NCBI GenBank assembly: GCA_029834535.1
Contig: JAQMWT010000308.1
Location: 124,001-188,000 of the forward strand
Length of the DNA stretch: 64,000 nucleotides
Direction: 5' to 3'
Origin: Chrysophaeum taylorii
Lineage: Eukaryota; Sar; Pelagophyceae; Pelagomonadales; Pelagomonadaceae
In this document: one piece after another, positions 1-40,487 of the stretch
How positions within the stretch are numbered: position 1 is the first letter of the stretch
Layout of the letters: each line of letters opens with the position of its first letter
Program-made: the position numbers and the translations under genes
Notes under the pieces: generated by a model
The model's input: only the letters and a program-made list of their open reading frames with translations
The model's database searches: none
What the model was told of the DNA's origin: nothing

Positions 1-742
1 AATGTTCTTTCGCCAATCGGACCGTTTGTTATCCGGAATCCGAAAGATAACGAACTTACCATGCTTGTAATCATCCCGAAAGGTCTCCTTGGGCTTGGGC
101 ACAGCTCGATCGACCACTGGGGAACCATCACAGGGGTGATCTGGCTAACATGAACACAACGGCGTTCAGGAGGAGAATCAAGAGACTCAATCCTGTAAGT
201 GGCCGGGGACAAACGTTCTAAAATAACGAATGGACCGCGCCATTCCGGTCGAAGCTTGTTCTGAAGAAAAGGAATGTAGAGCAGAACATGTGAACCTTCT
301 TCATACTCCACATCAACATGGTCCGCATTATAGGCGAGACGTTGTTTACGAAGAGCCTTCTCACGAGCTTCGTTCACCGTGGCGGCACAGAACTTCAGCC
401 TCTCGCGAGTCTCTGCCACAACATCGAAGCGAGTTTTCGGCAAGCGGCGGACATCAAGATCCATGATCGTGTAATCGGTTGGCAATAAAGGCTGCCGGTT
501 AAGACGAAGCATGAAAGGTGAGATCTGAGTCCCCGGAATAAACTTGCAATTGTAGCAAAAAGCAATGTACTCCGCGAATTCGGGCCATTCCGTGATCTTG
601 CGGTTTTGAAGGCACGCACGGAGGAAAGCCCTGATAAAGCGGCTGACCCTTTCCGCAGGATTAGCCTGAGCATGATACGGAATCGTGGTACTATACCGAA
701 CATTGAAAAGATGACAAAACTCTTCCATCAACTTGTTGACGA
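1..742 (-). pseudogene. gypsy integrase, C-terminal half
   Basis: The frame is open from the hAT insertion to the window edge. It starts with the F-V-N-K-L region that follows the second catalytic Asp, continues through Y-H-A-Q-A-N-P-A-E-R (the catalytic Glu of the DDE triad) and ends in the usual gypsy tail: a GPF.I...P.TY.I block near 60-200 followed by V-H-V-S-Q. No chromodomain is visible before the window ends. Together with 2028-2594 it makes one integrase split by the hAT. The enzyme normally joins cDNA ends to host DNA. Confidence 0.85.
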
Positions 743-750
743 ACTCTTTC
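743..750. repeat. 8-bp target site duplication, left copy (ACTCTTTC)
   Basis: The same 8 bases occur at 2020-2027, immediately outside the other end of the hAT element. Removing the transposon and one copy restores the gypsy integrase frame. Confidence 0.9.
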
Positions 751-2019
751 CAGCGTTGTGCATTTACTAAATCAGTTTAGTAATGTAACGAACATTACTT
801 ACCACACCTTTTGAGTAAAGTAATTCGTAAAGTAAAAGTCGAGCATTACAGCAGCCGGGTGGCGCGTAAAGTAAAGGTAAAGGCTGCTCGGGCTGAAAAT
901 TTTTAATTTTGCCGTATTTCTCATCCAGCCGCAGCCTCGTACGGGGACGACGGAGCACAACGCAGCGGTGTGATGAGCGGACTCGCTTGCTTTTAATGGT
1001 TGATCTTCGTGGTTAATCGTATCGTCTCCTTTGTTTTCTTCGAGGGGAATGATCTCGGACTTGTACTCGAACTTCTTGAGGATGTGGCCGTACTTGTCTC
1101 GAGCCCACTTAATAAACTCCTTGTTCAAGCGCAGGGTCGCGAGCATGTCCAGCTCCTCGTCGCTCAGGAGGGTGTTGCCCTCAGTCATGACAGTGTTGGC
1201 AGCGGAGATGATGCACCCGCAGAGGCTCTCAGCTGGCAGCGCGCTGATATTGCCCTTCGAGACTCGTGCAATGTCTGGAAGGTAGCCGTACTGATGCGCT
1301 CGCAGAAGCTCTCAGCAGGCAGCGCGCCGATATTGCCGTTCGAGCCTAGTGCGATGTCTGGAAGGTAGCCGTACTCCTGGTTACCTTCTATTCGCGTGAA
1401 CAGCTTGCCGACGTTGAGCAACATCATGTCCAAGAGCTTGGAATCCTGGAGGTGTCGGAGGAATCCGAGAGGTCGTCAAGAAAGAAATTCCTTGAGCCAC
1501 TCGATGGTAAAAGCGTACTGGACCCGCTTCACGAAGACGTGTTCGAACTCCACCATGAAGTCCGGCATCGCCTCCTCCGATTAATCAGGTTGCTACTCTT
1601 CTGGCTGAGGAATGGCTTCAGCCCAGAAGTCGGGCTCGTTGTCGTCATCGTCATCTGAGTCGGACGCCGGCGCAGTCGCATGAAGCGCGTTGCCGTCCTC
1701 CTCCTCACCGTCGCAGTACCACCCTTGACCTCATTCTCCACGTTGTGGCATGCCATCGGAGGCGACTGCTCCGCTTCGGCCGGCCTGGCCGTCGCATGCG
1801 GGGTCCGTAACGCAGACATCGTCTACAAGACCCCGCGACGTCGCCCAACTCGACTCGTCCACATGGATGACGTACCCGATGTAGTACTGTCATGTAAAAA
1901 AATTAATTTTACCATCATTTTGAAACGACTGTAAAGTAATGGTAAAGTAAAGTAAAATAGGTAAAGTAAAGGAATTTCGTAATATTTTTTACTAACGTTT
2001 GAGTAAATGCACACCGCTG
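751..2019. mobile_element. hAT-superfamily DNA transposon, 1269 bp, non-autonomous
   Basis: The ends are CAGCGTTGTGCATTTACT and, inverted at the other side, CAGCGGTGTGCATTTACT: 18-bp terminal inverted repeats with one mismatch, starting with the CAG typical of hAT. They are flanked by 8-bp target duplications, the hAT length. Just inside both ends (about 770-880 and 1930-1990) there are many GTAAAGTAA-like subterminal repeats, as expected for transposase binding. A decayed hAT dimerisation domain lies inside, confirming the family independently. It sits inside the gypsy integrase, so it inserted after that element. Confidence 0.93.
799..1433 (-). pseudogene. hAT transposase remnant (C-terminal dimerisation domain)
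   Basis: Around 1060-1390 the minus strand encodes Y-L-P-D-I-A, then A-L-P-A-E-S-F-C-E-R, then I-S-A-A-N-T-V-M-T, then L-S-D-E-E-L-D-M-L-A-T-L-R-L-N-K. This is the hAT C-terminal dimerisation signature (LP..A....PA.S...ER.FS.....T..R..LS.E....L..L..N). The block is interrupted by a tandem duplication of about 90 bp (near 1211-1290 and 1301-1380) that repeats the L-P-D-I-A to A-L-P-A-E-S part and breaks the frame. A stop after E-F-L-S near 1480 and the absence of the N-terminal catalytic region show it is not functional. Confidence 0.75.
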
Positions 2020-2027
2020 ACTCTTTC
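2020..2027. repeat. 8-bp target site duplication, right copy (ACTCTTTC)
   Basis: Exact match to 743-750, directly abutting the CAGCG terminus of the hAT element. Confidence 0.9.
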
Positions 2028-2594
2028 CCATTGTCGGTACGAACCCTCTGAGGTAGATAAACTTTGAGCAATATATATTCGCGACAAAAGACTCGAGGAT
2101 TGACTAAGCAGTCTTATGGTGTAGTACGTCAAGAATCAAGAAATGAGAAAATGGATCAAAAAAGATGATCAGATATGTCTCGGGACCAGCACTGGGCAAA
2201 GGTCCAAACAAATCCATGCAAAGGACGGCGCAATCACCATCATACACCGGTTGCTGAAGCAGATCTGCTCTCTTTTGTTCAGGCGTACGAGCTTTCTTGC
2301 ACACTATGCAACCAGCAATGCAAGCACCCACCTCATTAGACATGTGGGGCCACCAAAAACGTTCAAGTATCGACTGCACTGTACTTTGACGACCCATATG
2401 CGCGTCCGTAAAGTTCGGGGTGCGACTATCATCGGGTGCAAGTCGGGTGCGGCACGGTAGAGAACTCCTTTCACCACTTGAAAGCGATAATTGGCTCCGT
2501 ACCGACGAAGAGAATGGCCCTGAGCCATGCGATAACGAATGTCCTCGCAAGTAGCATCAGTGATCTGCTCTTTGGCTATCTCTTCCAAAGTCAC
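2028..2594 (-). pseudogene. gypsy integrase, N-terminal half
   Basis: The minus strand reads an H2C2-type region (F-W-W-P-H-M ... C-I-A-G-C-I-V-C-K-K-A-R), then C-M-D-L-F-G-P with the first catalytic Asp, then R-T-D-N-G-K-E with the second, directly at the hAT border. Upstream, T-L-E-E-I-A-K to L-Y-R-A-A-P is the usual gypsy segment between RNase H and the zinc finger. A frameshift near 2400 (the frame changes from 2304-2594 to 2104-2550) and one near 2104 break it. Confidence 0.8.
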
Positions 2595-2915: not shown

Positions 2916-5013
2916 ATGAGGCACCGTCCTCCATCGCAACCGCAGTCGGCGATCCAAAGTCAAATTATCCGGAATCTTGTCGATGTACTCTTGGTAATCA
3001 TCGGCATCACGGAAAATACTAGGCTGGGTCTGCAGAAGTTGCTTCTGACGTTGTTTCGTAGCATGAGACGTGACCAATTGCATCGGATCATCGAGGTCTT
3101 CTTCCTCTTCCTCCACAGGCAACTCAGTCGTAACAAACGACAGAATGACATGGCACCCAGGTAAAGGTACTCCTTCATCATCGACAGGGCGAGGGAGTTC
3201 TTGGCACACTAGATACGCGTGGTTGAAGGGTTCACCAAACTCGTCCGTCTCGATGATATGATCTATAGGATTGCGAGAGAGACAGCCAGGGATACTCATT
3301 CCCGGCGACTTCCCTGGTTTGTAACCCAATTCAGGATCAAAGTTGGCGAGCCGCATCGCCCATCGAGCCAACTGCCCAGACGAGTGCTTCGCCTTTCGTA
3401 AAAACGTCAAGTTGCGATGATCCGTTTCAAGGATCGTCTTGTGACCTTCGATATGAGAGCGGAAATGCTCAAGAGAAAGAAGAATAACTGCCAGTAGCTC
3501 TAGCCGGCGAGGCTCATAGTTCCGCATCTCTTTCGGCACAGCTCGGCTCCAATACTCAATTACTCGTTCCTCTCGTGTCACCTTGCCGGTTTCGTCCTTG
3601 ACGTCCACGAGCTGAAAAAGATACGCGCCCAGACCATCCTTGGAAGCATCCGAGCGGATCTGAAAAGGAAGATCGTAGTCAGGATGATAAACTCCGCGAG
3701 AGTCCACCAAAGACTCGATGATCGTGTCCCATGCCTTTTGGCACTCAGGCGTCCACTCAAACTTAACGCCTTCAAGACACAATCGCCCAAGCGGCTCCAC
3801 AATCTTCGAATAATTCTTCACATATCGGCGGCAATAGTTGCTCATGCCAATGAAAGATCGAATCTGGGTCTTCGGGGACGTATTGGGCAACGTACCAGGA
3901 ATCGGCATCTGCTGCAACGCTTCTAACGTCTTGGGATTCGGCTTCAAGCCGTCCGGAGTCGAAATATGTCCCAAAAACTCGATTTCATTCTAGAGGAGGT
4001 GGAACTTCGAAGTTCGTCCACTATATCCTCGCTGAGCTAAATGGCACAAGACTTCAATCAAAACTTGTAAATGTCGGTGGAGTTCATCCGATCCCATCAT
4101 AATATCGTCGACAAACGCGACCAAGTCCTTATACATCCATGTGGACAAATCGCTAGCCATCTGCTTACAAAAGAGAGCTCCTGCTGTTTTTACTCCTAGA
4201 GGCAAGCGCAAGAAACTATGGGCTCCAAGTGGACTAACCATCGTAACGTCGTCCTGAGCAGCGGCGTCCAAACGTAGGTTATGATAACCCCATCGAATAT
4301 CAATGCACGTCCGCCAACGGCGCATGGCAAGAAAAGCCAAAATCATCTTGACGAATATTCGGCCAACTGTCATTGACCAGCTGATCATTGAGCTGACGCA
4401 AGTCAACTGCAGCACGAAAAGCATTCGACGTCCCGGCCTCTGCTCCCTTCTTAGGCAGCATCAGTACAGGGAATCCCCACGGAGAGTTCGCCGGTCGGAT
4501 GACTCCATCGCGACACCACTCAGTGATCTGCTTTCTGAGACACTCGAGCTTTGCTGGCGTCAACCTATAAGGCGACCGATAAGGCGTCATCTTGATCGGT
4601 CGTGGGTTTGCGTCTTTAAATCGTAGAGAAACCGGTGGCGAGTCTACGGGTCTCATAATCGGATCAAAAAAAGCCCACGCGTATTGCACGCAGTGGCTCA
4701 ACATCATCTTCGCATCATCATCCAGATGCGGGTTGTCGGGAATTCCCAGTCCTCGAACAACCTTTTCGACTTCTTCCTTCGTCGGAATTACGACTTTCAT
4801 CGCCTCGTTGTCCTTGACGTGCTCAGGAGTCTGCGGTAACGGTACACCGTCCGCATCGCGCGGCGCATCCTTCCATGGCACATCGAACTTTTCTTCGTAT
4901 TTGAATCTCACCTCAGGGTGGCTCTTATTGATCTTTTCAACTTTGACGGGCACATTCGGCTCGCTCCTTACTTTCGGCTCCTGTTCAGGTTCAGGATCCG
5001 GCGGAACGTCCAC
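2907..5013 (-). pseudogene. gypsy reverse transcriptase and RNase H
   Basis: The frame starting near 5013 carries the RT fingers: D-G-V-I-R-P-A-N-S-P-W-G-F-P-V-L, then A-A-V-D-L-R-Q-L-N. After a frameshift near 4310-4420 the palm follows, with R-L-P-L-G-V-K-T-A-G-A and the catalytic F-V-D-D box near 4110. A TAG near 3990 and another frame change lead to 2907-3974: G-H-I-S-T, F-I-G-M-S-N-Y-C-R-R-Y, then RNase H with S-D-A-S-K-D-G-L-G, E-L-L-A-V and T-D-H-R-N-L. All RNase H carboxylates are visible. Copying element RNA to DNA is the family role; three frame breaks make this copy inactive. Confidence 0.9.
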
Positions 5014-5029
5014 TTTTGATTGTCGGGGG

Positions 5030-5606
5030 GGGGCAGCAGAAAAAGCATGAGCCGTCCCCGGCGCATCTGTTGGAAGCGGAAGCGTGACTGGAAACCAACA
5101 ATCGCACGCGAGAGCTCATCAGAGTGGGCGTGATATCATGAAAATGGACGACGTACACGTAAGGGTGCAAGCGTGCTATATAAGAAATAATGGACGCCTC
5201 CTGGTCGATCAGCCGCATCATGAAGCCAGCCATTTTGCACAGCTTCATCGTCCAGTTAGTGGCCGTAACACCCCTGCCAACATCTCTGGATGTCAAGTTG
5301 CAGAGTGCGGAATGAACACAGGGTGGAGACGCTATACACATCGACGATGACCATTCCGCTTCAGGCAAATAAGCCTTGATCAATCGGAGGGTCGAGTCAT
5401 ATCGTCCGCAGAGCGTGTGCTGAACCACAGGTATCTTCGGAAAATTTTTCTGTTGAACCTTGTTGGCAGTTGTTGAAGAGTCAAGAGCAAGGACGACTCG
5501 AAACTACGTCCCGCACAACTCGTTCGCTCGTTGCAGTCCTAAAGTACTTCCTCCGGCGCCGCTAAAGAGCATCACAACCTTGCGATACGTGATCGGCACC
5601 CAGTGG
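5030..5606 (-). pseudogene. C5 cytosine DNA methyltransferase domain inside gypsy pol
   Basis: The minus-strand frame from about 5606 reads V-V-M-L-F-S-G-A-G-G-S-T-L-G-L (motif I, SAM binding), then L-A-L-D-S-S (motif II), N-F-P, and C-I-A-S-P-P-C (motif IV with the catalytic Cys, near 5318-5333). It ends with M-S-S-R-V-R-L-L-V-S-S, matching the motif VIII Q-x-R-x-R region with Ser in place of Gln. Between them, T-N-W-T-M-K-L and I-D-Q-E-A-S fill the motif VI region. One in-frame TAG (5504-5506) interrupts it. The frame passes into the RT frame through a run of nine C (5025-5033). The domain lies between protease and RT, an abnormal place. Family role: transfer of a methyl group to cytosine C5. 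Confidence 0.82.
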
Positions 5607-6527
5607 ACCTTTCAAACCTTCGGCGAATCTCGCCTTCTGTAACTTCTCGGCATTTCTTTTCCTCCTCGTCAGTTCTTCGGTCGAAATCGTCGTTACCGAG
5701 CGATTCTTGACGAGAATTCTTCTTCTTATCGGCAGAAGGAGGCGCCTTCTGCACCGAGCTCAAAAGCATCGGTTCGGGAGCCGCATCGCCTTGAGTAAGA
5801 TGGCTTGCGACCGAAACAGTGAATGATAGGTTAGCCTTGTTAGATTCGGCTTCACCATCCTTCGTTAAATCGTCGACCGTCTCAGCATTCAGCTCGTCAT
5901 CGAAACGAACAACATCGCCCAAAGCAAGGACTTCACCTTGAGTAATCACGGTCGGCACATCCCGGGTAGAGGATATCGCCACTCGAGCTGCGAACTTATC
6001 ATGATCCTCAGGAGAAGAACACATTCCATCGACTACCCCGAGTTGCTCGTACCCAGAAGACGTAGCAACGAAAACTTGCCCAGTTTCCACGGGCTCTGAA
6101 AGAGCACGCAGTAGGTGCGCCCAGGCTCGACCTTCATCGTGCGTGCAGCATAGGCTATCACTTCATAGGCATCGCTGTTCGAACTTTGAGAAGGCGTAAC
6201 TGGAGGGACTCCCCAAATCGTCGAAGCTCCCGCTCGTTTCGGCGGTGGACGCTGGAGGTCTTCAATCTTGCACAAGCGAGCGTAGACTCGGCTCTCAACT
6301 GTGCTCAGGCTCTTTTGCATCGCATGGTGCTGTTGCCCATAAACCTGAACTACCACGGGATTGCTCTCGTCATAAGTTGTTCTGAACGTCAAAATCGGAG
6401 AATCGACTCGTCGGTCCTGCACCTTTAACTTCTTGCGCCCATAAGCGACTTGTGTGCGGAGAAACGCAATGCGATTTCGCGGGTAATCCACTATGGCTCC
6501 CAACACCCGAATATCGCGCGCTCCCAG
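5572..6527 (-). pseudogene. gypsy protease C-terminal part and linker to the MTase
   Basis: The frame at 6033-6587 reads L-G-R-S-A-L-G-A, then I-V-D-Y-P-R-N-R-I-A-F, the usual end of a gypsy retropepsin (GRD.L followed by a Y/F-rich strand). It continues with A-R-T-M-K-V-E-P-G-R-T-Y. A frameshift near 6080 moves to 5572-6090, which holds V-E-T-G-Q-V-F-V-A-T-S and a V-A-I-S-S-T...L-A-L-G-D block. This is the beta-rich connector seen between PR and RT in gypsy elements, then an acidic/lysine-rich stretch (D-K-K-K-N-S-R) leading into the MTase. Confidence 0.65.
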
Positions 6528-6808
6528 GGCACTTCTTCCTAACAATATGCACTTACGTACCTGGCGCCGACCAGCTTTATTGATCACAACTCATCCGAGT
6601 TTGGCGCTACTTCTGCATCTCTGGCTGACTTGGAGGAATACCTTCTGGTCTCTACAGAGTTTATCACCCAGGTCTTACGTACCGACCCTACTATCCATAC
6701 CCAACTGGAATCTGCCCCTACTACTCCTACCGACGCTGTTTCCGTTTATCCCGAAGGAGCGCACACTGCCTCGACCGTAACGTCGCTAAACTATAATTCA
6801 CCAGCCAG
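6527..6808 (+). mobile_element. fragment of copia C inserted in the gypsy protease
   Basis: This stretch is nearly identical to 30798-31075 of copia C (pre-RT region), with a 9-base insertion near 6628 and scattered substitutions. It is antisense to the surrounding gypsy gene. The edges fall at short shared sequences (GGCACTTCTTCCT on the left, CCAG on the right), and I see no target duplication and no LTR. That fits template switching or microhomology repair rather than normal integration. It includes one copy of the S-T-x-T-S-L-N-Y coding motif (6771-6794). Confidence 0.85.
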
Positions 6809-8758
6809 ATGATTAGTATCGGTCACAATAGCAACAAATGGAACGGCCACGTCGTCCGCAAGCGCAATCCGCAATGCGACCCATTTGTGGATAATCGTCT
6901 TGTTCAGTCCTGACCCGTACAGGGTGCGCTCGACTGGAAGATCGCCCCGGTCAAGGATGATGCTATCCTTTGCCAGTTTTTCGACCATCCCACGACAAAT
7001 ATAGGAGACATCAGCCATTCCATCCACGCCTAAAGTCGTTGCGAACTTCGGCCCGTCTCGTCGTCTATAAATATGACCAACTATAAACGTAAGTGTACCA
7101 GGGTCCAAACAACCAATGGTGATGAGATCTTGCTCGATCTTTTCCCCATCGCTCGGCGAAAGTGCAGTGTGATGACATCGTATCTCCGGTTTCGCATCGC
7201 CCGGCATCTGCATCGTCACCGCTGCCATATCTGGCGTTCCACATCTCGCCGCTGAATCTATATTGGCGCTCGCCGCTTCGGCTGCTTCCTCATTCCCCAG
7301 TTTCGCTGACAACAAACTCTGACACTTCTCAGTCGGAGGCACATATATCTCCTCCTTTATCTCTTCTGGCAATCGTCGTTTCTCGTCCATCAAATCGGAC
7401 ATTCCCGTCAACTTCTCCTCCATCGGCGCCGCTGTGGTCTGCTCTGCTGCGACCAAAACTGTATCGGCTAAAACGGTCTCGGGTAAAACGGTCTCGGGGG
7501 GCCTTGTAGGAAATGAAGACGTCGTCCCCGACGTCAACTCAAAAGGTCTAACGTCATCATCGTGAACTGCCCTGCAAGACATGCACATTGACGAATGGGG
7601 GGACACTGGAACCTGCGGCATGGGTTCGTCGGTCTCCGAATCTGAGTCTTCCCAGTAGTGCGGAGAATCCAAAGTATCATCTGATATTGCTTCCACATAC
7701 AATGTAGAAGGCCACCGAACGATCCGAGCGTTGGTGGTATTTTGCTCCTGTTGCAAACGATGGCTGCTCGTCACAGCGACATCGGCAACATCATCGGAGA
7801 CTCGGGCGGGGCGCGCCGTCGGGTAAAAGACAACTCCCGACGATGGCGGCGCGTCGCATAAAGATTGGAACGCGAAAGTTGCGCTCGAATGTCCCGAACT
7901 ATCCTGATATCGACCTCCGTCATATTCGTCATCGTAATGTCGATGACGTCGGCGCCGGCGCGAATTGCGACTAGAGCTCCGGTGACGGCGAGGACTCGGG
8001 CTGCTTTGAGGAGTATTAGCTTTTTGATCGGGGCTCTGGCTTCGACGTCGGCGGGACGATCGTCTAGGAGGTGATCGTCCGTCTCGCTGTCGTGTAGAAA
8101 ACGAAGTAGTATCCTTAATGCCTCTGACCTCGCTCACCATGGTCGCCATTGTGGTTCCAAGATCGGTGAGGGCCGATTGAATTTCATTAGAAGGCTCCGA
8201 TCCGCGCGTGGCGTTCGCATGAGATGCATCATCACGCTTCGCCCAATCGGAACGCGATATGGGTTGCTTCTTCTGCTTATGAATACGCTTCCACATCGCA
8301 CAGTAATAACGATCCGGATCGCGGTTGCAAACCACGCGATTTCCGTGTTCATCTTCACCATGGGTGGTCCAGAAGAACCCGCAGTGCTTGCACGTCTTCT
8401 TGCCCCACAAAAAAAGGATCTCGTAAGATCAGCGGATCTGTATTCCCAGACGGTTTATCCGCATCTTGCTGGCAAAACGCTCAGCTAATCGTTCATTTTC
8501 GCGACGTCTCCGCTCGAGGTCTTCACGAAGTCGACTTCGGGCTGCAGATCCGCGCTCAATCGTAACACGCTCGCCACGGTCCGGGGTCGTGGGACTCAAC
8601 GGCGTAAAAATGGCAGTATCCGGAGGCACGTCAGGGGGCACGTCAGCAACGTCGGCTGCCTCGGCCTCTCTTAATTCACCTTCCTCGCGGCCTATATCAG
8701 GGGCAGCGGGAAGAACTGGAGGAGATTCTTCCTCACGCACGTCTGCGTTTATATCCAT
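6809..8758 (-). pseudogene. gypsy gag/zinc-knuckle-like region and protease start
   Basis: The ATG at 8758 opens an acidic, then Arg/Glu-rich segment (R-S-R-L-R-E-D-L-E-R-R-R-R-E-N). An in-frame TGA near 8430 precedes a Cys/His cluster, C-K-H-C-G-F ... C-N-R ... Y-Y-C-A-M-W-K-R, then a long Ser/Arg-rich stretch (S-P-P-R-R-S-S-R-R-R-R). The C-terminal part (about 7110-6809) reads G-V-D-G-M-A-D-V-S-Y-I, aligning with the retropepsin V-D-T-G-A-D-V-S-x-I active site but with Thr-Gly replaced by Gly-Met. The frame is then cut by the copia shard. A gag this short may be missing its N-terminus. Confidence 0.7.
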
Positions 8759-9044
8759 ACTGTATCAAAAAATATCGATCAAGAATCTCGAAACACGTCC
8801 GGATCCGATCATTCGAAGTAATGCACGTTGATTCCAACAACGCTATCTGTCGCTGTAAAAACAGCACTCGCGAAATTCCAATCCGCTGGCAATTCAAAAA
8901 CGCCCGTGGGTAGCGATCCCACTCGCTAAACAGCTTTCACCGTTCAGCTATACCAAAGTCAATTCCCGAGAGAATGCGCTGCGATTTCCAACTCGCACGC
9001 GTGTTCGTCGTCACTCGGATCACACCCGAAGAGAGAAGAAGCCC
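8759..9044. other. non-coding stretch upstream of gypsy gag
   Basis: This should be the 5' leader of the gypsy element. I find no confident LTR end, TG/CA terminus or primer-binding site in it, and no repeat shared with the rest of the window. Confidence 0.4.
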
Positions 9045-13709: not shown

Positions 13710-13732
13710 ATGTGTTTATAGATTACATGATA

Positions 13733-25163: not shown

Positions 25164-25666
25164 TCCCTGAGAAACCATGTGTCAACATGCACGTAATAAC
25201 CTATGGGTATTGGGCTGTTACCGCGCCAGCTCAGCCTCGTCATGTGACACGCTTGTCAATATATCGCCATTACCATTGGGCTGTATATAATATCTTTTTG
25301 CACACGTGATCGTGTAACCTTGTGTGCACCTGTTCATAGCATCGTATTGTCATGTCGATGTTGATGTGTGTGTAATTGGCTAACCTGTACTCTTGCACAC
25401 ATGTTATGGAATATTTTGGGTACGTCCACTCGTACATTCCATGGCAATGCTTAACAAGCTCCTTGAGAGCACCAAAACTAACCAGCTGCCTGAGTGACTA
25501 CGCTTAGCGACACTACTCTGGACTCACAGCTTGCACAGTCGTCATATAGACACATTTTCCATCGAAAAATCGATGAGTGTACATAGACACCGATAGACAG
25601 ACCCCCTTAGAATGTCTAGACAGTGTCAACTGCGTGACTGAACCCACAGGTTCCCCGTCAACTGCT
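25164..25666 (+). other. leader of copia C, no gene
   Basis: Untranslated region between primer site and gag. The gag frame is open from 25577 through a GTG, but ATG at 25667 is the likely start because it places the protein in register with the related gag at 14667. Confidence 0.6.
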
Positions 25667-27724
25667 ATGGCAGAACACGCAGCACGAGCCGCACCTAAGG
25701 CGATCACAGGTGCGGATATATTGAAGCTCGAAGCTCCTGTAGTTGAGTTTCTTAATGAGGGGAACCGCTTCCAGCTTCAGAACCGCAAGGTATCCTTGCA
25801 AATCAAGCATATCAAGCAATTACTACGGTCCAGTCATGCCGATGCTTTCCTCGAGTACGACTCGTATGAAGCATATACTCGGTCATGCAAGGACTACGAA
25901 ATCCTCCGGAATCAAATTCTCGATCGCGTTTTCCTGGAATGGAAGACCGATAGGGCTGCTGATCTCCGTTTAGCTGTTGATGAATTACCCCCTGAGTATC
26001 AGGAATGGCATTTCACCAAAGAAGCTTTCCCCCACCTACCTGACGCAGAAGTAGCTCAGCTAACTACTGTCTGTTACGACTATGAAGTCAAGGCATTACG
26101 TCCTGAAATCAATGCTCGTTTCTTAGAAGAGGAACGAATCTTAAATCGCGCGCACCCGAAGGCACTAGCTTTCGACACTCGTGTTCGTGCCCCGGTTACC
26201 ATGTTTTCGTTAACTGCAGCTGGCTGGCACACTTACCAGAACACGTACGCTACATTCTTGCATACTTACTTCAATCTTGAAAGTGTTGGAAAACCGGCAC
26301 TTGCGGCCTGGCCCGCCATCAATGAGGTATACAACAAAAGTTATTTACCCAACAAGGCTCGAGCTATTATGCTCATTGCCTTTAGTCACTACGAGTCTGT
26401 TACGACTACTGATGTGTCTTATTTGAAACAGCAATTTAACCCTGTTGTTTATAATCCTTTCTGGTATGTCCATGTATTTATCGAAGCTGTCCTAGCATTT
26501 AGGCAAATCTCTTACCAACTTAACCAGGAAGAGACTGACCTTCAATTCGACTTTGGCACTCTTTGCAGAAAAATCTATGAAGAGATACATCGGCATTATG
26601 CCTATAATACCAGCAACAACCGCCACGATCGTGGTTGGGTAGATTGGTGTTATATGTACGAAACCCGATCTTCATCTCGACCTGTACCAGAAGCTGAACG
26701 ACTGTGTCACCCTACCAACCCGAGCTACATTTTAGAATACGCATTAGACCTTTACAGTGTCGTATCAAATGGGTCGAACAAAAGACGCTTAGAACGCCCT
26801 GTTTCTTGGCAACCCTATGTCGAAGGTTTATCATCTCAACCAAAGCCAAAGTTACTTCTTGCACATACTTTGGACTCATCGGACAAAAGTCTGACTCAAA
26901 CTGCTAACACACTCGCCTTCATCACTTCGCCCCAACCTGGTACATCTTCCACGTTTAATGCTAGACGCTTGCGTAACTCTAATGATGCTCGCCAGCCTTT
27001 CTCTCGCAGTGATTTATCGTATTATCGTCCTGGTGATTCTTACGTCACCAAGAAAACTGCCGGACAGTCCCATGACCGTCCAATTTATCCCCGCACTTTT
27101 GACAGGTCCTCTCGGTCTAACATGAAATTATTAGATCGAACAAGTCACACCTTAAACACCCTGCGAGAACAGTGTAGCGAACTCACGAAGCATGTGACAG
27201 ATAATGATACCACGGCTCAGCTACAACATAATATCAACAAGTTATTTGAGACCTTGCTACAATCAGCCGATATCCTGTCAGCGACATCTACTGAGGACAA
27301 CAGTAGTTTACTTCGTCTAAACGAACAGCTCATGTTTGCAGAAGACATCATTTATGATGTAGACGTTCATCTATCCTCGACCGAAAAGTCGTTAAACTAC
27401 GTGGAGCCACAACACCATACTGTCGTTACTGCTCCCACCCCAACAACAACTCCTCCTACTACAAACAAACAGGGTAATCCTTCCAATACTGTGTCTAACC
27501 TCTTTACCGCTTCCGCCATCTCGGCTTTACCACCAGCATTATTGTCCTCGCTATCTTCACAGGTCCAATCTGCCCTCAACCTACCATCACAAGCCGAAAC
27601 CAAAAGGGATGCCGATCACACTCTCTATCGTCATTTGACGAAAAGCACGGCATGGCTGATGAGGCTGACGAACCATCACCACCTGTTCAACCGATCATTA
27701 TTCCAACGAATCTGTTATTGCTGA
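25667..27724 (+). CDS. copia C Gag
   Basis: About 685 aa from ATG 25667. The helical N-terminal part (K-V-S-L-Q-I-K-H-I-K-Q-L, F-L-E-W-K-T-D, L-H-T-Y-F-N-L-E-S, F-G-T-L-C-R-K-I-Y-E-E) matches the two gag relics at 14667 and 16345. No CCHC zinc knuckle is visible. The C-terminal region has helical segments (L-D-R-T-S-H-T-L-N-T-L-R-E-Q), then S-T-E-K-S-L-N-Y at 27377-27400, a Pro/Thr-rich linker, and an overlap with the -1 frame that begins protease. It packages element RNA in virus-like particles. This is the only long intact frame of the element. Confidence 0.85.
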   Translation: MAEHAARAAPKAITGADILKLEAPVVEFLNEGNRFQLQNRKVSLQIKHIKQLLRSSHADAFLEYDSYEAYTRSCKDYEILRNQILDRVFLEWKTDRAADLRLAVDELPPEYQEWHFTKEAFPHLPDAEVAQLTTVCYDYEVKALRPEINARFLEEERILNRAHPKALAFDTRVRAPVTMFSLTAAGWHTYQNTYATFLHTYFNLESVGKPALAAWPAINEVYNKSYLPNKARAIMLIAFSHYESVTTTDVSYLKQQFNPVVYNPFWYVHVFIEAVLAFRQISYQLNQEETDLQFDFGTLCRKIYEEIHRHYAYNTSNNRHDRGWVDWCYMYETRSSSRPVPEAERLCHPTNPSYILEYALDLYSVVSNGSNKRRLERPVSWQPYVEGLSSQPKPKLLLAHTLDSSDKSLTQTANTLAFITSPQPGTSSTFNARRLRNSNDARQPFSRSDLSYYRPGDSYVTKKTAGQSHDRPIYPRTFDRSSRSNMKLLDRTSHTLNTLREQCSELTKHVTDNDTTAQLQHNINKLFETLLQSADILSATSTEDNSSLLRLNEQLMFAEDIIYDVDVHLSSTEKSLNYVEPQHHTVVTAPTPTTTPPTTNKQGNPSNTVSNLFTASAISALPPALLSSLSSQVQSALNLPSQAETKRDADHTLYRHLTKSTAWLMRLTNHHHLFNRSLFQRICYC
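27377..27400 (+). other. T-S-L-N-Y-type motif 1 (Gag/protease border)
   Basis: Codes S-T-E-K-S-L-N-Y followed by V-E. It is one of four in-frame copies in copia C (also 31037-31060, 32943-32966, 34183-34206), each at a domain border. Proposed protease cleavage site after Tyr. Confidence 0.5.
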
Positions 27725-28440
27725 AGAACTTCTTTACAGCCAGCCTCTCCACTACTTGCCCACATTCGGAAAACGCCTTCCTCACCAACTACATGAAGGT
27801 AAACAGTGTCCCTCCACATTGCTCTTTTCTATATTTTGACTCTTGTGCTACCATCTCATTGATGTCCACCTACGATTTCGCAATACCCAGTCATATAATT
27901 CCATTGGACTCCACGTACGCTCCGATTGTTATTCAGACGGCAACAGGACAACAACGGGCATCACACATGATGTTAACACGCAACATCGTTATTCCCCTAC
28001 CAGATCATCCACAAGTTGGCTACGTTAAGATCGACTTCGCTTTATGTCTTCAACCAGTGCATGACCGACATCTCGCTATCCTGAGCACGCTCGAATGGAA
28101 CCAGACCAATCTTACCACCGTGTTCGACGATCGAGCTGAGCCAAAGCTCAGCGCTGTCACGAGCCGCATAGACAAAGATGTACGTATACCCATACACTAT
28201 GTCGCAGCTAATTTACCCGCTCTCCCTTGTATCACTTACAACATCGCGCGCGACAAGCGGCTGGAACTTCGCTCCCTTGCATTTCCCCTCAAGCGATACC
28301 ATGAAAACAGGGACCTACTGGCATACTACAATTACCTACTCCAACGAGTTTTACCAGATCGGCCGTGGATTCGCCCTTTGGTTCTCAATCTTCGGAAACA
28401 GAACAAATTTGTTCAGCAAAATACGCAGCCATTAACCTGA
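27652..28440 (+). pseudogene. copia C protease region (-1 frame relative to gag)
   Basis: The frame overlaps the gag end in the -1 register. F-L-Y-F-D-S-C-A-T-I-S-L-M near 27830-27870 aligns with the copia protease active site (W..DSGAT.H..), with Cys in place of the Gly after Asp-Ser. The following I-V-I-Q-T-A-T-G-Q is the usual flap region. The frame ends at TGA 28438-28440 but continues in the same register into the MTase, so this is a nonsense mutation or readthrough stop. Retroviral-type aspartic proteases act as dimers on the polyprotein. Confidence 0.7.
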
Positions 28441-28455
28441 CTACTCTCACGCCCA

Positions 28456-29250
28456 GTGTTTCTCTCACAAGAGTCCAATCTCCGCAAACCCTCTGTCATG
28501 TTACTTTGTTCTGGTTTGTCAACTCCGGCGTTCCTGTCTCAAGCCACTAATGACTTAGGCTTAAATATCAATGTAAAAGTTGTTGTTGAGTCTGATGATA
28601 CGCCTGTTCGTATGTTACGCCACCGTTTTCCTACTGTACTATTATTTGAATCTCTCCCCGCCTTTATTAATCATCTTCACCTAATCTCACCAGAGGAAAG
28701 GCGCACATTCTATTGTGATATAATTGAGATCACTTCTCCCTGCACAAACAGGAATTTACTAAAACAACAAAAGTCAGAAGACTTACACAGCCTGCTGGAC
28801 GATTCTCTTTTCGACAGCATGCTGTCTGTCATCAAGTTACTCCAGCCCTTGGTACTACTGGCTGAGATGACGCCTCCGCATAAGTACTGTCACCAAGACC
28901 ACATCACAGTGGCCAACCTTATCTATGCTACTCTTGATTACTGTGTCGATGTTGTTGATAGGTTCCCGACCTACCTATGTGGCGACTACCAATCTAGAGA
29001 AAGGTGGATATGCGTCGCACGCAGATATTCTACTGGACCAATTAAACTATCATCGTGGCCCATCCTCCATCCACGCCCCTTCCTAAAGATCGTGGATGAT
29101 CTACAAGCTATTCCCAAGCGCCTTTGGCTACCTAACCACATATCCAAAGACTGGATCCGGGTGTTCCCCGATCCTCCATATATATCCGTTCCTAAAACGT
29201 TTGCACCTTACTCTCGCACAGGTTCTGCTCAGCTTACTATGGCTGACCTT
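28456..29250 (+). pseudogene. C5 cytosine DNA methyltransferase domain inside copia pol
   Basis: In the protease frame. Motif I: V-M-L-L-C-S-G-L-S-T-P-A-F-L-S (near 28492). Motif II: V-V-V-E-S-D-D. R-F-P follows, then motif IV: D-I-I-E-I-T-S-P-C (catalytic Cys codon 28741-28743). Then L-F-D-S-M-L-S-V-I-K-L-L-Q-P, motif VI-like L-A-E-M-T, and motif VIII: C-G-D-Y-Q-S-R-E-R-W-I-C-V-A-R-R (ends near 29026) with the full Q-x-R-x-R. Order and spacing match bacterial-type and eukaryotic C5-MTases. The catalytic Cys, Glu and Arg residues are all present, unlike the more eroded gypsy copy. No stop lies within the domain. Copia pol normally has nothing between protease and integrase. Confidence 0.85.
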
Positions 29251-30105
29251 GAATCCCTCAATATGTTACTGCTTCGCCTTCACTCACAACAGGCTCACGA
29301 GCAACGTACTCACTCTGTTCAATCCGAGTGTACTTACCATCAGTTGTGCTTTAAACGCTCCTCTATGGAGCCATTACCCAATGCAACACATCCTATACAC
29401 GTCAAGATTTTTACAATCCTCTATAACGTGTTTGCAAGCTTACATACTAACTCACCCACTCCTGTGTCCTATTACATAACCGTTTTCGAAACTAACCAAC
29501 CGTCACACAGGTTATTACTTACAACCTCATCAACATCACACAACTCCTACTTCTTAACTGGTGGCCACCATTCCGACGGCGACCTCACCATAGAGAACGC
29601 CACCACAAAACACTCCACCCCCATTAACGCCTTTGGGAGCACGTATACGTTCACTGCTTCCGACATCCCCCGCGACCGGGACAGGTCCATATATCTGGAG
29701 CCGTTTATGGGTTACTTGTGGATAGTCCAAGCCCTTCCCCAAGTTGGCTCCGCTACCACCTATGGCACCGCCATACAAAACCTCGTGTCCAGATGCGATC
29801 TCGTGATGCCTGGCTGCCTTACCTACAAGGCCACCGACAACTCTTTCAATTACAAGGATTCTCTTTTTAGTGACCGCAAACTCGGCTCTAAAATCCACTC
29901 AGTGCTTGCTCCATTGCCAACCGTCCGAGGGTATGCCAATATTATTTTACTCGACCCTCGCAACGGGAAATTACGCTACTGGGCGGTGATACACACCGGT
30001 CAAAGCTATAACCTTCTCTCGAACGCCACGCTCGAGCGCATTCATCATGCTATTCTGAGTCCGCAACAGCTACTCTACAACCAACTTGCAGCATCCTACT
30101 CCTGA
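29251..30105 (+). pseudogene. copia C linker with integrase core lost
   Basis: The same frame continues to 30105. The beginning (Y-H-Q-L-C-F to S-Y-Y-I-T-V-F) aligns loosely with the N-terminus of copia A at 13709. The end (Y-A-N-I-I-L-L-D-P-R-N-G-K-L-R, then W-A-V-I-H-T-G-Q-S-Y-N-L-L and I-L-S-P-Q-Q) matches two copia A integrase C-terminal segments, but in swapped order. No zinc finger and no DDE residues are seen between, so the catalytic core has been deleted, apparently by template switching. Confidence 0.6.
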
Positions 30106-35719: not shown

Positions 35720-36868
35720 ATGCCAGCCAATCAAGAACTCCAAAAGGAGATAAGAGAACAAGAAGCTCGCTTAGAAGCCAAGTACCAAAGAGACATGCAA
35801 CAACAAGCTCAAGCGTACGAAGCTCGGCATCAACGGGAGATGGCAGCACAAAAACAAGACAACGACGCTCGCTTCCAAGCACTCGAAGCGCGATTTAATG
35901 CCATGCAGGCACCACCACCTGCCGTCGCTGCTGCGGCTCCACCCCCCCCTCCAGCTCAACAAGACCCCAAGACCAAAGCTAACACTTTTAGTGACCCACC
36001 TAGCGCCGTCCTCAAGTCAATGGACTCGGCTCAAGTCACACCCCAAATGCTTTCGTTTCGCGTGATGCAGTTGTTCGTCGAACATCTGATGTCTGAAACA
36101 GGCATAACTCAGTACTTCCTACAATGCTTCTAGACGTGGGAATCCGTCTTGCGCGGATCCAACAATCTCGCTGACGCCCTCCTAAGCCACTGTATCGACG
36201 AATACGACAAGGACCCCGACCACCACTCTACCGCCGGGAACACGCCAGATTTCCAAGGTCGTTACGTCTACCACAAGGGTGTCTACCGCAAATTCGGCAA
36301 GCACTTCCTGGAGAACGTCTACGAGCCAAAGCTCCAAGAACTTAAAGATAAAGACAAGGACCCGACCGATATGACAAAAGGCAAGTTATTATCCGATAGC
36401 CTCCAAGGAAAAGAAGCCGACTTCATCGTATATCTCCGCGAGACCGCACACCCCCTCTTTCGCCGTTTCCTACATGCCGGTAGCGACTCCGTCAAGCACC
36501 CAGCATACGACGAAATCGATGCACTCGGATCTTCCTATCCGATAGGACTCGAATTTGTGCTTCAAGTTCGCCTAGCACTCGACAAGCACACGGGCCAGAA
36601 CCACGTCCACCATGCGCATTACGTCTATAATGCCTTTCTGGACACGCCGTTCAACCCAGAAATACATGAGCCTGCTCACTACATTGACTACATGCGCCAT
36701 GTCCAGCAGCAACTGCGCCAGATAACAACACGAGCTACTATCCAACGCCTTGCTGCTGATCTCTCCAGACCACATCCGCTATGCGACCCTCAACGAAATC
36801 GCAGAGTTTGGATCGGACCCGGAACTGCTCCGTCTGTTCCAACAGCACCCACCGTACTTCGCGTTTAA
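35720..36868 (+). pseudogene. copia B Gag, first part
   Basis: ATG at 35720. A Glu/Gln/Arg-rich coiled-coil N-terminus (E-I-R-E-Q-E-A-R-L-E-A-K-Y, then E-A-R-H-Q-R-E-M) leads to a Pro/Ala spacer. An in-frame TAG at 36131-36133 interrupts it, and the same frame continues to about 36780 (D-A-L-L-S-H-C-I-D-E-Y-D, H-Y-V-Y-N-A-F-L-D-T-P-F). Structural protein of the element. The sequence differs from copia C gag, so this is a separate family. Confidence 0.75.
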
Positions 36869-37734
36869 GGCACTGGCCAACGCCCAGTGTCCCGCACCAC
36901 ATGCTGCAGGCAAAGTACAGCGCTGTCCTCGCATTCCACGAATCGCACCACCACGTGAACCTTCACGTCGAATGGGCCACGATACGCCATGGCATCCCCA
37001 GCCCCGGAGACATCAACCAGGTTGCAGAATTCTTCTCGGCCATCTCAAGCCGTCTCTTAGCAGAGGAAGACCTGAACCTCACCTCCCTATTCAATGCTGT
37101 TGCAGATGCTCACCATGATGCGATCCGCAAACCAAGCAAATCGCAAAACCTCGAGACGCTTCTCGCCGAGGCAACCGTTGCCAAAGTCCGAGTTGACAAG
37201 CGACCCAGCCCCCCTAGCGCGTCGACCGCCGCACTACCCCCCTTGCACAAGCCCGGCACCAGTCAGCACGCTAAAAGAGTGCTTCTGGTCACTCGCTGGC
37301 ACCGCATACACCACCAGCAACCAGAGATTCTTCGCCGCACGATGGCCGCTAATGTAATGAATCTTCGCCCAGGTGATGATCGGTATCTGCAAGACTGCAG
37401 CGAATGCAAGCGCTGTCAATCGCATGTCAGCTTCCGTCACAACAACACTTCCTGGTCACCTGATGAACTAGCCTATGCTCCTGGCCAACACCTCCACATG
37501 GATGTATCGTACCCGAGCATCAGCAAGTGCTACGGAGGATTTCGCTACATCATGCACTTCGTGTGTATTATCTCAGCACACAAGTGGGTCTATTTCCTGC
37601 GGAAATTAGACGTACAGGATGTTCTGGCCGGCATCCTCTATGTGGTCAATGTGATTAAAGTCGAATTCGATGTCAGTGTGAAGATCATATCGTCTGATGC
37701 ATTCTCAACTTTCCGCTCTGAAGCTCCGCTCTGA
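36781..37734 (+). pseudogene. copia B Gag end fused by deletion to integrase
   Basis: The frame starts with gag-like sequence (E-W-A-T-I-R-H-G-I-P-S-P-G-D, A-E-F-F-S-A-I-S-S-R-L). After about 37250 it passes straight into an integrase zinc region (C-S-E-C-K-R-C-Q-S-H) and the core beginning H-M-D-V-S-Y-P (first Asp), then I-I-S-S-D-A (second Asp). Protease, and any domain between it and integrase, is missing, so an internal deletion joined gag to integrase. Confidence 0.75.
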
Positions 37735-38581
37735 AGCTTTCCACCCCCTCAAGGTGCAACTTGGCATCCAGTTTCAAATCCTTGGTCGCCACCTCCACCA
37801 GCGGAATTTTGCGGAAAACATCATCAAGGAAAACACCCGAGGCACCGTAGTTCGTCTCCTCAACCTTCGCAGTGTACGCATCGAAGGAAAGTCTATTGCC
37901 GCCGAGTATTATCATCCATTTGCTCTCCTGCATAAGATCCAAGCCGACAACCAGCGCTCTCATGGACTGCCCTCGCGCACAAACATGACATGCACCGTTC
38001 CCCGGCGTATCACGTCACACATGGCACCGCTCTTGAAGCTTCTCCCCTTTGGCGAACCTGTCACTTTTGTCTACCCTCAAAGTCACAAGCTGGAACCCTC
38101 CAGCGTCTCCGCCTCTTACTTTCATAGTAACAACTATCTCCCGAACCTCCCCGGAACGGACCGATTTATCCGTGATGTTCACAGCTCTATCTTGCTTGTA
38201 CATCAGGGGCGATATGGAAAAATCGTCACCTCTAACGACTTTCATGTTGACGCAGACTTGCCTGTCAACCGCAACAAGGAGATCGAACGGATCAAAGCAC
38301 TCGCACAGATCCCAACAGAGGCACGACAAGAGAACCTTCTACCAGCTATAAGCGAACATCAAATGCCGGAAGTTAGACAGGAATCGCAAAATGAGGGCGA
38401 GACTCACGATGACGAGCAGGATGATAAACCTAGCGATGACGACGAACACAAAGAATCGGATCCAACGCTGCTGATTCAAGTCCCGTCAGCGACGAGACAC
38501 CTGAACAGGATTTTTCGTTCCTTAACCGGCCACCTCCGCCGGATGGTAGCATTCCGATGCCCAAACGAAAAGATCGCCTAG
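37697..38581 (+). pseudogene. copia B integrase C-terminal part
   Basis: Shifted frame. It continues after the integrase core with V-T-F-V-Y-P-Q-S-H-K-L-E-P-S-S and an acidic low-complexity stretch (E-T-H-D-D-E-Q-D-D-K-P-S-D-D-D-E). The catalytic Glu region near 37740-37830 is damaged. It connects integrase to RT. Confidence 0.6.
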
Positions 38582-39708
38582 AGGTTGTTCTCGACGATTC
38601 AGGTTTTACCCCAGTTCTCGTGCATCGCAACCAGAGCGATAAGCTCAAGGCAGATCTCAAGGACGAACGTGGATTTCGCATCCCTAAGGATCAACTCTAT
38701 ATCGTGAAACGTGTTGACGATGGAAAGCTCTTCACCAGACGCATTATCGCCTCAGAGTATGGTCGCAACTGGAAATATCAGCAAGAGCAATCCACAGCTC
38801 ACGCCACAGCCAACATGTCCAGCACATTAATGTTCCTCATCAGTGTCAGCGCTCTGCACCAGGGCCACGCCGCCAGCATCGCATCTGATCCCAACATTCG
38901 AAGAGATGCTAAGCCGCCAAATGATGTCCCGAAAGGATGTCTCCTAGCAAGTACCACACAAGACTATCGTATCATGGGCGGCACCGCACTGGATTTGCAG
39001 AGAGAAACCGACGCAGAACTCTTGTATGTTGACTTCCCAAGGAAGCCGCACCACTCATCTGTATTGGTTGACCACCTTGATAACGACAGTTCTGTTCTTG
39101 AGAACTATGTGTGCCACGACGAACTGTCACCGGCAGAGTACTATGCGCGTCAATGGAACCAAGAATTCTGTAGTATGGGTTCCTCTCTTTTGTGTGACAT
39201 CTCCGCGCATCAACACTACCACCTAGCTTCTCGTCACAGGCATGCCTTCATGCATGATTCTGGCGAACTCGGACACCTCTTCCTAAGTCAAAGTGATCCG
39301 AATCAAGATATTCTACAAGAAGCCATGGACTATGATTTGCAGCACATCGATCACGTCGTCTTACAGCTCGTGACCGCTGAAGATATGGTCTATGAGCCTG
39401 AAAAGATTGTCGAACTCAAAGGACTCAGCGAAGAAGATAAGTTAAAGCACATTGCTTCGATTCGCAAAGAAATTGAAGGATTGTGCTCCAATGGTGTCTT
39501 TAAACTCGAGCCTTTACCGCCAGACCGTTCGTCTATCTCGACGAAACTCGTGCTGAAGATCAAATATTTTGCTGACGGCACTCCAGACCGCTATAAAGCT
39601 CGTCTAGTCGCCCGAGGTTTCTTGGCACGTGTAGGCATTGACTTTTATGCCACATCCTCCCCAACGCAGTGCTTGCCACCAACCTGCTACTGCTCGCCGT
39701 CGCTGTGA
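38557..39708 (+). pseudogene. copia B pre-RT and first part of RT
   Basis: The end of the frame reads I-R-K-E-I-E-G-L-C-S-N-G-V-F, S-T-K-L-V-L-K-I-K and R-Y-K-A-R-L-V-A-R-G-F, the fingers of copia RT. A frameshift near 39670 leads to the next ORF. Confidence 0.85.
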
Positions 39709-40487
39709 AGCACAAGCTCCCCGTCGCGCACGCGGACTTTCCTCAGGCATTCATCCAATCGGCACTCGATCGCCCAGTATGGATCGACTTCCCTCGAGGA
39801 ATACGTGTCTCGCAAAATCTTATCCAGCAGATACAGAAGAACCATCCAGAGTCGAAGCTCGCTCTCCGACTCGTCAAGGCTCTCCGTGGCCTCAAACAGT
39901 CAGCTTTGTTGTGGAACATCAAACTCGACTCGTTTCTTCGACAACATGAGTTCGAACGCTCACAAGTCGACACTTGCCTCTATATCAATTGGGATCGATC
40001 TATCAACAAATGGGTTCTACTATCCGTTTCAGTCGATGACCTATTGATCACTGGTACCAACACTGCCAAAATTACATCTCTTCGCACTGCTCTGGAGAAG
40101 GAATATGGCAAAGGTACGTGGCATGACAACATCAGATCCTTTCATGGCATCGATGTTCACTACAATGCCACCGCTGGTCATCTCACTATGAATGTAGCAG
40201 CGAAGATCACCAAGATGCTTGCTGAGCATAAGCTCAACCTACATAGTCTAGACGTCCCCTATTCGGACATCCTCACCCAAAAACCTTCTACTAAACTTCT
40301 CTCAGACTTGGCTCCTACCTTAGACGTATTACGCCAAAACTTTCCTTACTACTGTGGCACTAGCATTTACTTGTCTGTCACATGTCGGCCTGATATCACC
40401 ACTTTGTGCAACAAATGCTGCAAGGGGATGCACAACCCCGACCAGACCCACCTTCTGCACTTATATGTTTTACTTCGCTACTTATAG
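39669..40487 (+). pseudogene. copia B reverse transcriptase palm
   Basis: H-A-D-F-P-Q-A-F-I-Q-S, V-K-A-L-R-G-L-K-Q-S and the catalytic S-V-S-V-D-D-L-L-I-T-G near 40030. Thumb region to L-L-R-Y-L, then TAG. Truncated relative to a whole pol. Confidence 0.88.

What the first reader, a model, noticed from the sequence alone, without database searches (positions are those of the whole stretch)
5030..5606. C5 cytosine DNA methyltransferase embedded in a gypsy polyprotein between protease and RT
Seen: motif I L-F-S-G-A-G-G, motif II L-A-L-D, motif IV S-P-P-C and motif VIII S-R-V-R in correct order, flanked in the same strand and order by gypsy protease and RT. Known: standard Ty3/gypsy pol has no such domain; capture of C5-MTases by retrotransposons has been reported in Symbiodinium-type dinoflagellates and in the charophyte Klebsormidium. 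Inference: the element could methylate its own new copies, either masking them from other host responses or tuning its silencing.
Basis: partly seen in the sequence, partly recalled or inferred. Interest (0 to 1): 0.92.

Follow-up and report, generated by a model that had tools for sequence, protein, structure and literature searches.

The report
Methyltransferase domains inside algal LTR retrotransposons
In the genome of an unnamed photosynthetic alga, hundreds of copy-and-paste DNA elements from at least three families carry a built-in domain of the cytosine-methylating kind, which could let these elements chemically mark their own genetic material.

Summary
Minus strand 5608-5084 holds the first 175 residues of a C5-methyltransferase (MTase) between a protease-like domain and the reverse transcriptase (RT) of a Ty3/gypsy element. 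This copy is dead: one in-frame stop and a 551-bp deletion of the MTase's C-terminal half.
It is no one-off. A genome search scored 113 places with this domain, 90 without stops. One copy of a second subfamily encodes it in a single 3063-residue frame with RT, RNase H and integrase. dN/dS between subfamilies is about 0.07, with dS near saturation. Of 150 RT places, 80 have a scored MTase upstream; 8 of 8 sampled from the other 70 carry MTase sequence too.
Two Ty1/copia families, both represented in the window, carry different MTase or MTase-like domains between protease and integrase. Host-type C5-MTases seen: one Dnmt2-like, one DNMT5-like.
Retrotransposon DNMTs, one in a gypsy element, were published in 2018, so this is a new variant of a known kind. 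Self-methylation is untested; CpG statistics give it no support in family 1.

The parts
5084..5608 (-). C5-MTase remnant of the Ty3/gypsy element (family 1), residues 1-175 of 359
   Evidence: tblastn of L010 MTase: 96.6% identity over residues 1-175; MTase identity of the relatives
5549..5566 (-). motif I, FSGAGG
   Evidence: translation
5504..5506 (-). in-frame stop inside the MTase of this copy
   Evidence: translation; position counted from the residue mapping
5318..5329 (-). motif IV, SPPC (catalytic cysteine)
   Evidence: translation
5102..5110 (-). motif VIII, RVR
   Evidence: translation; position counted from the mapping
5083..5084 (-). junction of a 551-bp deletion relative to L010 that removes the C-terminal half of the MTase
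   Evidence: blastn of window against L010; split match
6423..7117 (-). protease-like domain (VDGMADVS), interrupted between 6806 and 6527
   Evidence: tblastn of L061 ORF pieces; read by eye, no Pfam protease hit
5611..6425 (-). linker between protease-like domain and MTase, frameshifted
   Evidence: tblastn
4456..5082 (-). segment between MTase and RT
   Evidence: tblastn
3951..4455 (-). reverse transcriptase (RVT_1), frameshifted
   Evidence: tblastn; Pfam 5.7e-9 on 3990-4460
3339..3755 (-). RNase H
   Evidence: tblastn; Pfam RT_RNaseH 1.5e-24
135..2403 (-). integrase in two pieces (2403-1939 and 782-135), interrupted
   Evidence: tblastn; Pfam Integrase_H2C2 2e-10
6809..9025 (-). upstream part of the same element (gag region and start of pol), with a deletion
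   Evidence: blastn to L010, 95-96% in two blocks
27499..28440 (+). protease-like ORF of a Ty1/copia element (family 3), LYFDSCATISLM
   Evidence: ORF list; motif read by eye, no Pfam protease hit
28441..29340 (+). MTase-like domain of family 3 (TSPC, AEM, GDYQSRERW)
   Evidence: PHROG 116 DNA methyltransferase 0.0014, 9 of 11 copies at E up to 1; no Pfam hit; 131 candidates scored
31097..32927 (+). reverse transcriptase and downstream region of family 3
   Evidence: Pfam RVT_2 1.4e-25; tblastn of family-2 RT
36741..40292 (+). remnant of the family-2 Ty1/copia element: end of the MTase (motif X), integrase, RT
   Evidence: tblastn of L062 ORF, 90-97% identity

Best explanation
The finding is a dead copy of a Ty3/gypsy LTR retrotransposon family whose Pol includes, after the protease-like domain and a linker, a complete single-domain C5-MTase, then RT, RNase H and integrase. 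Shown: the domain is a long-standing, conserved part of the family. Inferred: it is made as part of Gag-Pol, packaged with RT in the virus-like particle, and uses S-adenosylmethionine to methylate cytosines of the element's own nucleic acid (new cDNA most likely, genomic RNA or primer tRNA next), marking the copy before integration so that it is tolerated or handled differently by the host. Two Ty1/copia families in the same genome have MTase or MTase-like domains after the protease, which suggests that early Pol is a workable place for such an enzyme.
For: MTase identity: PF00145 in 15 of 15 members, TIGR00675 in 14 of 15 far below its cut-off, PHROG 9.4e-8, profile match to the host Dnmt2-like protein above 24 of 24 shuffles with PPC on PPC. 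The catalytic Cys97 and Glu135 of the degenerate motif VI (E-Q-E for ENV) are 38 residues apart, the HhaI spacing (recalled). Integral part: single 3063-aa frame in L061, a 3067-aa frame listed for a second copy; 90 of 113 scored domains without stops; near-fixed position before RT in 80 of 150, MTase sequence in 8 of 8 sampled others. Constraint: dN between L061 and three A copies 0.12-0.135 in the MTase against 0.28-0.30 in the linker and 0.03-0.07 in RT. True LTR insertion: LTRs in 2 of 5 regions searched and a 5-bp target duplication, CGAGT. Precedent: both SymbioDIRS-Dnmt3 domains tested methylate CG in yeast (PMC5890265).
Against: No activity, expression or methylation data. Sequence significance rests on residues 10-66; in five longer ORFs PF00145 falls under its cut-off (four of six, L061). 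Motifs VI, IX and X are degenerate and were read by eye. The protease-like motif lacks D[ST]GA. Family 1 shows no clear CpG depletion and no CpG hypermutability. In the 2018 yeast assay the gypsy (KnitGypsy) and LINE domains showed no activity, which the authors call inconclusive (PMC5890265). No usable structure model: both AlphaFold runs were below pLDDT 34, and intact copies were not folded. dS between subfamilies is near saturation. Copy counts include near-duplicate contigs (C10 and C297).
Confidence: 0.5

Rival explanations
1. The MTase acts on RNA: it modifies the element's genomic RNA or its tRNA primer, as Dnmt2 methylates tRNA, and so affects packaging, priming or RNA stability.
For: Of four other MTase profiles tested, family 1 matched only the host Dnmt2-like protein; the best PDB sequences are DNMT2 (E 0.13-0.25, not significant); no CpG signature.
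Against: The match covers only residues 11-165; the Dnmt2 CFT motif reads AYT here (by eye, motif recalled); no primer tRNA matched the binding site in one exact pattern search.
Confidence: 0.25
2. The domain is catalytically weak or dead and kept as a structural or nucleic-acid-binding part of Pol.
For: Motif VI ENV is E-Q-E, motif X lacks NAV, E135 is K in one copy (L018) and D in the window copy.
Against: Motif I, Asp43, PPC and RVR are invariant in 15 aligned copies apart from one motif-I alanine; Glu135 is kept in 14 of 15.
Confidence: 0.2
3. A chance insertion of a host or bacterial MTase fragment into one gypsy copy.
For: The window copy alone is truncated and broken.
Against: 113 scored places with the domain, two diverged subfamilies, purifying selection, one shared open frame.
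Confidence: 0.01

Closest known systems
KnitGypsy-Dnmt3 of Klebsormidium nitens (PMC5890265)
   Same: Gypsy-type Pol polyprotein with a C5-MTase, many copies, purifying selection
   Different: Its MTase is Dnmt3-clade and its repeats are arranged as in DIRS (figure legend); here the LTRs are ordinary direct repeats, the MTase was not recognisable as Dnmt3 (no tree made), the host has red-lineage-looking light-harvesting proteins, and copia elements carry MTase or MTase-like domains as well
SymbioDIRS-Dnmt3 and SymbioLINE-Dnmt (PMC5890265)
   Same: Retrotransposon-encoded C5-MTase in hundreds of copies; DIRS forms share one ORF with RT
   Different: Tyrosine-recombinase or LINE elements in dinoflagellates, not integrase-bearing LTR elements
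Dnmt2 tRNA methyltransferases
   Same: Only cellular profile match found for family 1, over residues 11-165
   Different: Degenerate ENV, no CFT (by eye), embedded in Pol
DIRS elements with Dam-like MTases; Sola1-1_Ec32 of Ectocarpus with ParB plus MTase (PMC5890265; PMC12477816 passages)
   Same: Transposable elements carrying a DNA MTase
   Different: Adenine or N4-cytosine type enzymes in other element classes

Membership tests
C5-cytosine MTase (PF00145) | significant profile match | tested here: met
   15 of 15 isolated domains match; L010 26.0 bits over the 22-bit cut-off, residues 10-66 only; longer ORFs mostly under the cut-off
C5-cytosine MTase (PF00145) | motif I F.G.GG, motif IV PPC, motif VIII R.R in order | tested here: met
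   F15, G17, G19, G20, PPC97, R167, R169 invariant in 15 aligned copies
C5-cytosine MTase (PF00145) | motif VI ENV | tested here: not met
   reads EQE at the expected spacing; the glutamate is kept in 14 of 15
C5-cytosine MTase (PF00145) | motifs IX and X | tested here: inconclusive
   LTLEMT..LLTMP and LASVVPPD resemble them by eye; no profile support
C5-cytosine MTase (PF00145) | methyl transfer activity | not testable with these tools
   needs an assay
Ty3/gypsy LTR retrotransposon | RT, RNase H, integrase in that order | tested here: met
   L061 ORF: RT 1997-2161, RH 2231-2368, IN 2552-2721
Ty3/gypsy LTR retrotransposon | direct LTRs and short target duplication | tested here: met
   LTRs 9.6-9.7 kb apart in L010 and L018, none found in the other 3 of 5 regions searched, which may not span both ends; CGAGT on both sides of the L018 copy
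Ty3/gypsy LTR retrotransposon | retropepsin D[ST]GA | tested here: not met
   VDGMADVS; no Pfam protease hit
Ty3/gypsy LTR retrotransposon | tRNA primer binding site | tested here: inconclusive
   TGG two bases after the LTR but no matching tRNA pattern found
KnitGypsy-Dnmt3 type | C5-MTase inside gypsy Pol | tested here: met
KnitGypsy-Dnmt3 type | MTase of the Dnmt3 clade | not tested
   no tree against named DNMTs was made: the protein database was off
Dnmt2 | CFT motif and ENV | tested here: not met
   AYT and EQE by eye; CFT is present in the host protein L019

The most novel reading that the evidence does not exclude
The genome's only candidate de novo C5-DNA-methyltransferases are those of its LTR retrotransposons. 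The host keeps a DNMT5-like enzyme (a maintenance type) and a Dnmt2-like one; gypsy and copia elements independently took up MTases at the same place, just after the protease, lay the mark on their cDNA, and host DNMT5 perpetuates it, so that the host's methylome is seeded by its parasites.
Probability: 0.12. Interest if true: 0.88.

Novelty: new variant of a known kind. Interest (0 to 1): 0.62.

Why it matters
One genome holds MTase or MTase-like domains in both main LTR superfamilies, in hundreds of copies, with selection shown for family 1. That makes the open question of why a retrotransposon would carry a silencing-type enzyme testable in a 71-Mb alga, with three families side by side. 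If the mark is set on cDNA and kept by host DNMT5, transposons would be a source of the host methylome and not only its target.

Tried and rejected
Structure prediction: the window's own 170-aa MTase piece and the family-3 domain, folded alone, gave pLDDT 33 and 32; no fold search was run on such models. Intact copies from the fetch from genomes were not folded, because the stated rule of structure prediction names only other sources.

Relatives elsewhere: viral-contig scans with family 1 and family 2 and a genome-contig scan with family 1 found none. Each used two short peptides, so they reach close relatives only; family 3 was not scanned.

One MTase for all: profile comparison does not join family 1 to families 2 or 3 (3 of 24 and 2 of 24 shuffles as high). 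This test is weak: family 2, a clear PF00145 member, also fails to match the host Dnmt2-like (1 of 24) and DNMT5-like (15 of 24) proteins, so no match is no proof of separate origin. Families 2 and 3 do resemble each other along 206 columns (0 of 24).

CpG as a footprint of self-methylation: no support in family 1 or 3; family 2 has a transition ratio of 1.20 and lower CpG o/e, which composition could also explain.

Primer tRNA: exact pattern search empty. Host name: the rRNA search never ran. LTRs of family 3 in the window: none of 80 bp or more found; LTRs of family 2 not sought. Rejected: one-off insertion.

Full report
What is in the window. Minus strand 5608-5084 encodes residues 1-175 of a C5-MTase. 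Upstream lie the gag region (9025-6809, with a deletion) and a protease-like domain; downstream RT, RNase H and integrase. The copy is dead: a stop at 5506-5504, a 551-bp deletion at 5084/5083, frameshifts, and interruptions in gag and integrase.

Relatives. A DNA search of the host genome (70.8 Mb, 697 contigs, unnamed) scored 40 of 445 candidates, at 95-98% identity apart from the window copy itself, and showed the deletion in the window copy. Ten regions were fetched (nine of 10 kb, one of 7.3 kb): all ten have an open frame with motif I, and five of ten keep the full 359-residue domain without a stop. A protein search scored 113 of 1090 candidates: subfamily A (this window's) and subfamily B at about 80% identity; by my count of the table 90 of 113 have no stop in the matched stretch. 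These are lower bounds for copies, but some are near-duplicates: contigs C10 and C297 carry the same elements at nearly the same positions.

Architecture. One B copy (L061) has a single stop-free frame of 3063 codons: protease-like at about 1050, MTase 1433-1791, RT 1997-2161, RNase H 2231-2368, integrase from 2552. Most other copies have shorter frames. Two A copies of five regions searched show direct LTRs 9.6-9.7 kb apart, 91-92% identical with gaps counted. The L018 insertion is flanked by CGAGT on both sides (by eye). So this is an LTR element of Ty3/gypsy domain order.

Is it an MTase? The isolated domain matches PF00145 in 15 of 15 members (best 2.4e-6; first member 26.0 bits, cut-off 22; residues 10-66), TIGR00675 in 14 of 15 far below its cut-off, and PHROG DNA methyltransferases at 9.4e-8 and 4.3e-7. 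In longer ORFs the score drops: four of six were under the cut-off, and L061. Profile comparison with the host Dnmt2-like protein L019 aligns residues 11-165, PPC on PPC, above all 24 shuffles (31.7 against a maximum of 25.7). The PDB search gives only non-significant DNMT2 matches (best E 0.13-0.25). Invariant in 15 aligned copies: F15, G17, G19, G20, D43, P95-P96-C97, R167, R169. Motif VI reads E135-Q-E in place of ENV, 38 residues after the catalytic cysteine; the matching HhaI spacing is recalled. Motifs IX and X were assigned by eye. The 15 rows leave out L014 (near copy of L011), L059 (1074 bases) and the truncated copies.

Selection. Between subfamilies A (5 copies, L014 included) and B (11 copies) the MTase has mean dN 0.126 and dS 1.86, median dN/dS 0.069, range 0.052-0.087, 55 pairs. 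dS is close to saturation, so dN is the safer measure. Between L061 and up to three A copies: MTase 0.12-0.135, linker 0.28-0.30, protease-like 0.20 (one pair), RT 0.03-0.07, RNase H 0.04-0.05, integrase about 0.10. Within subfamilies the ratio is higher (B-B median 0.25, A-A 0.48), as expected of a mix of dead and living copies. The MTase is constrained much more than the linker and less than RT.

Is it always there? Of 150 scored RT places, 80 have a scored MTase at a near-fixed offset upstream. Eight of the other 70 were fetched; all eight contain MTase sequence, frameshifted, rearranged or partly deleted. The other 62 were not checked. No family-1 copy without the domain was found.

Two more families. 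The genome search with PF00145 gave 57 matches (123 scored of 474 candidates). Thirty loci were cut: L019 and L020 are host-type proteins, and 28 of 28 others belong to one further MTase family (LPCQ...VENV), 57-100% identical to L062 in the best stretch. A Ty1/copia frame of 1952 codons (L062) has DGGAS, then this MTase (PF00145 1.1e-7), integrase core (rve, E 0.0061, below cut-off) and RVT_2 (1.6e-38). Scored: 78 of 770 candidates. A third family lies in the window at 25.6-32.9 kb; its MTase-like domain (28441-29340) has TSPC, AEM and GDYQSRERW, matches PHROG 116 at 0.0014 (9 of 11 copies at E up to 1) and no Pfam family; 131 of 1139 candidates scored. A natural copy (L082) shows protease-like motif, MTase-like domain, integrase motifs and further Pol sequence in that order, read by eye, with a frame break before the MTase. 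No LTR pair was found around the window copy. Families 2 and 3 resemble each other (25.2 against a maximum of 18.3, 0 of 24 shuffles); family 1 resembles neither above shuffles. As controls, family 2 also fails to match L019 (1 of 24) and L020 (15 of 24), so this test misses true relatives. At least two acquisitions are likely from the two superfamilies, not proven.

Host. It is photosynthetic: 84 light-harvesting matches; the one read looks red-lineage by eye. An outer-arm dynein docking protein (ODAD1_CC 2.9e-59) suggests flagella. The rRNA search never ran, so I do not name it. Host-type C5-MTases seen: a 360-aa Dnmt2-like single ORF (L019, with CFT) and a 2086-codon frame with a DNMT domain (7.9e-18) and an SNF2 match (C621:19899-20237, 2.9e-8), the DNMT5 plan; DNMT5 is described as a maintenance enzyme (PMC9998398, passages). 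No DNMT1 or DNMT3 was recognised among the assigned matches; genes split by introns, the 14 unassigned rows and unscored candidates could hide one.

Mechanism. Shown: domain, position, conservation. Inferred: packaging with Pol, methyl transfer to the element's nucleic acid, effect on the new copy. CpG o/e is 1.18-1.21 for family 1A, 1.32 for the 1B copy (MTase part alone 1.09 and 1.23), about 1.0 for family 2, 0.89 for family 3, 1.26-1.31 for host loci. Between copies, the CpG to non-CpG transition ratio is 0.88 (family 1A), 0.73 (1B), 0.73 (3) and 1.20 (2) (L014 left out). This neither shows nor excludes methylation, but it does not support CpG self-marking in family 1.

Prior art. PMC5890265 (abstract, Results in full, Discussion read): retrotransposon DNMTs in Symbiodinium (LINE, DIRS) and Klebsormidium (gypsy Pol, KnitGypsy-Dnmt3), purifying selection, and CG methylation in yeast by both SymbioDIRS domains but not by the LINE or gypsy ones, called inconclusive. 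PMC12344493 (section 5 and passages) calls the LTR case Copia, citing the 2018 paper, whose text says Gypsy; it also lists orphan DNMTs. PMC9998398, PMC12477816 and PMC3145265: passages only. In the listings and abstract starts I saw no further report of C5-MTases in LTR retrotransposons; the library holds open-licence papers only.

Noticed in passing
window 25577-32927 +: Ty1/copia element with a very divergent MTase-like domain between protease and integrase region; the integrase core seems deleted in this copy (compare L082)
   Followed up: yes
window 36741-40292 +: Family-2 copia remnant with only the end (motif X) of its MTase, then integrase and RT
   Followed up: partly
window 11385-13715 -: copia ORF whose integrase region is related to family 3; no MTase found upstream
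   Followed up: partly
contigs C10 and C297: Same elements at nearly the same positions on both contigs: probably allelic copies, so copy counts are inflated
   Followed up: partly
C621:16962-20237 (start in L020): Host 2086-codon frame with DNMT and SNF2 matches, the DNMT5 plan
   Followed up: partly
family 1, protease-like domain (L061 ORF residues about 1050): Retropepsin-like stretch reads VDGMADVS in place of D[ST]GA in both subfamilies
   Followed up: no
window 53028-55028 +: Very long proline runs in a predicted host protein, open on the other strand as glycine runs
   Followed up: no
C88, C539: Tandem arrays of light-harvesting protein genes with nearly equal scores
   Followed up: no
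L041 (C114): Family-2 MTase copy only 57% identical to L062: family 2 is itself old and diverse
   Followed up: no
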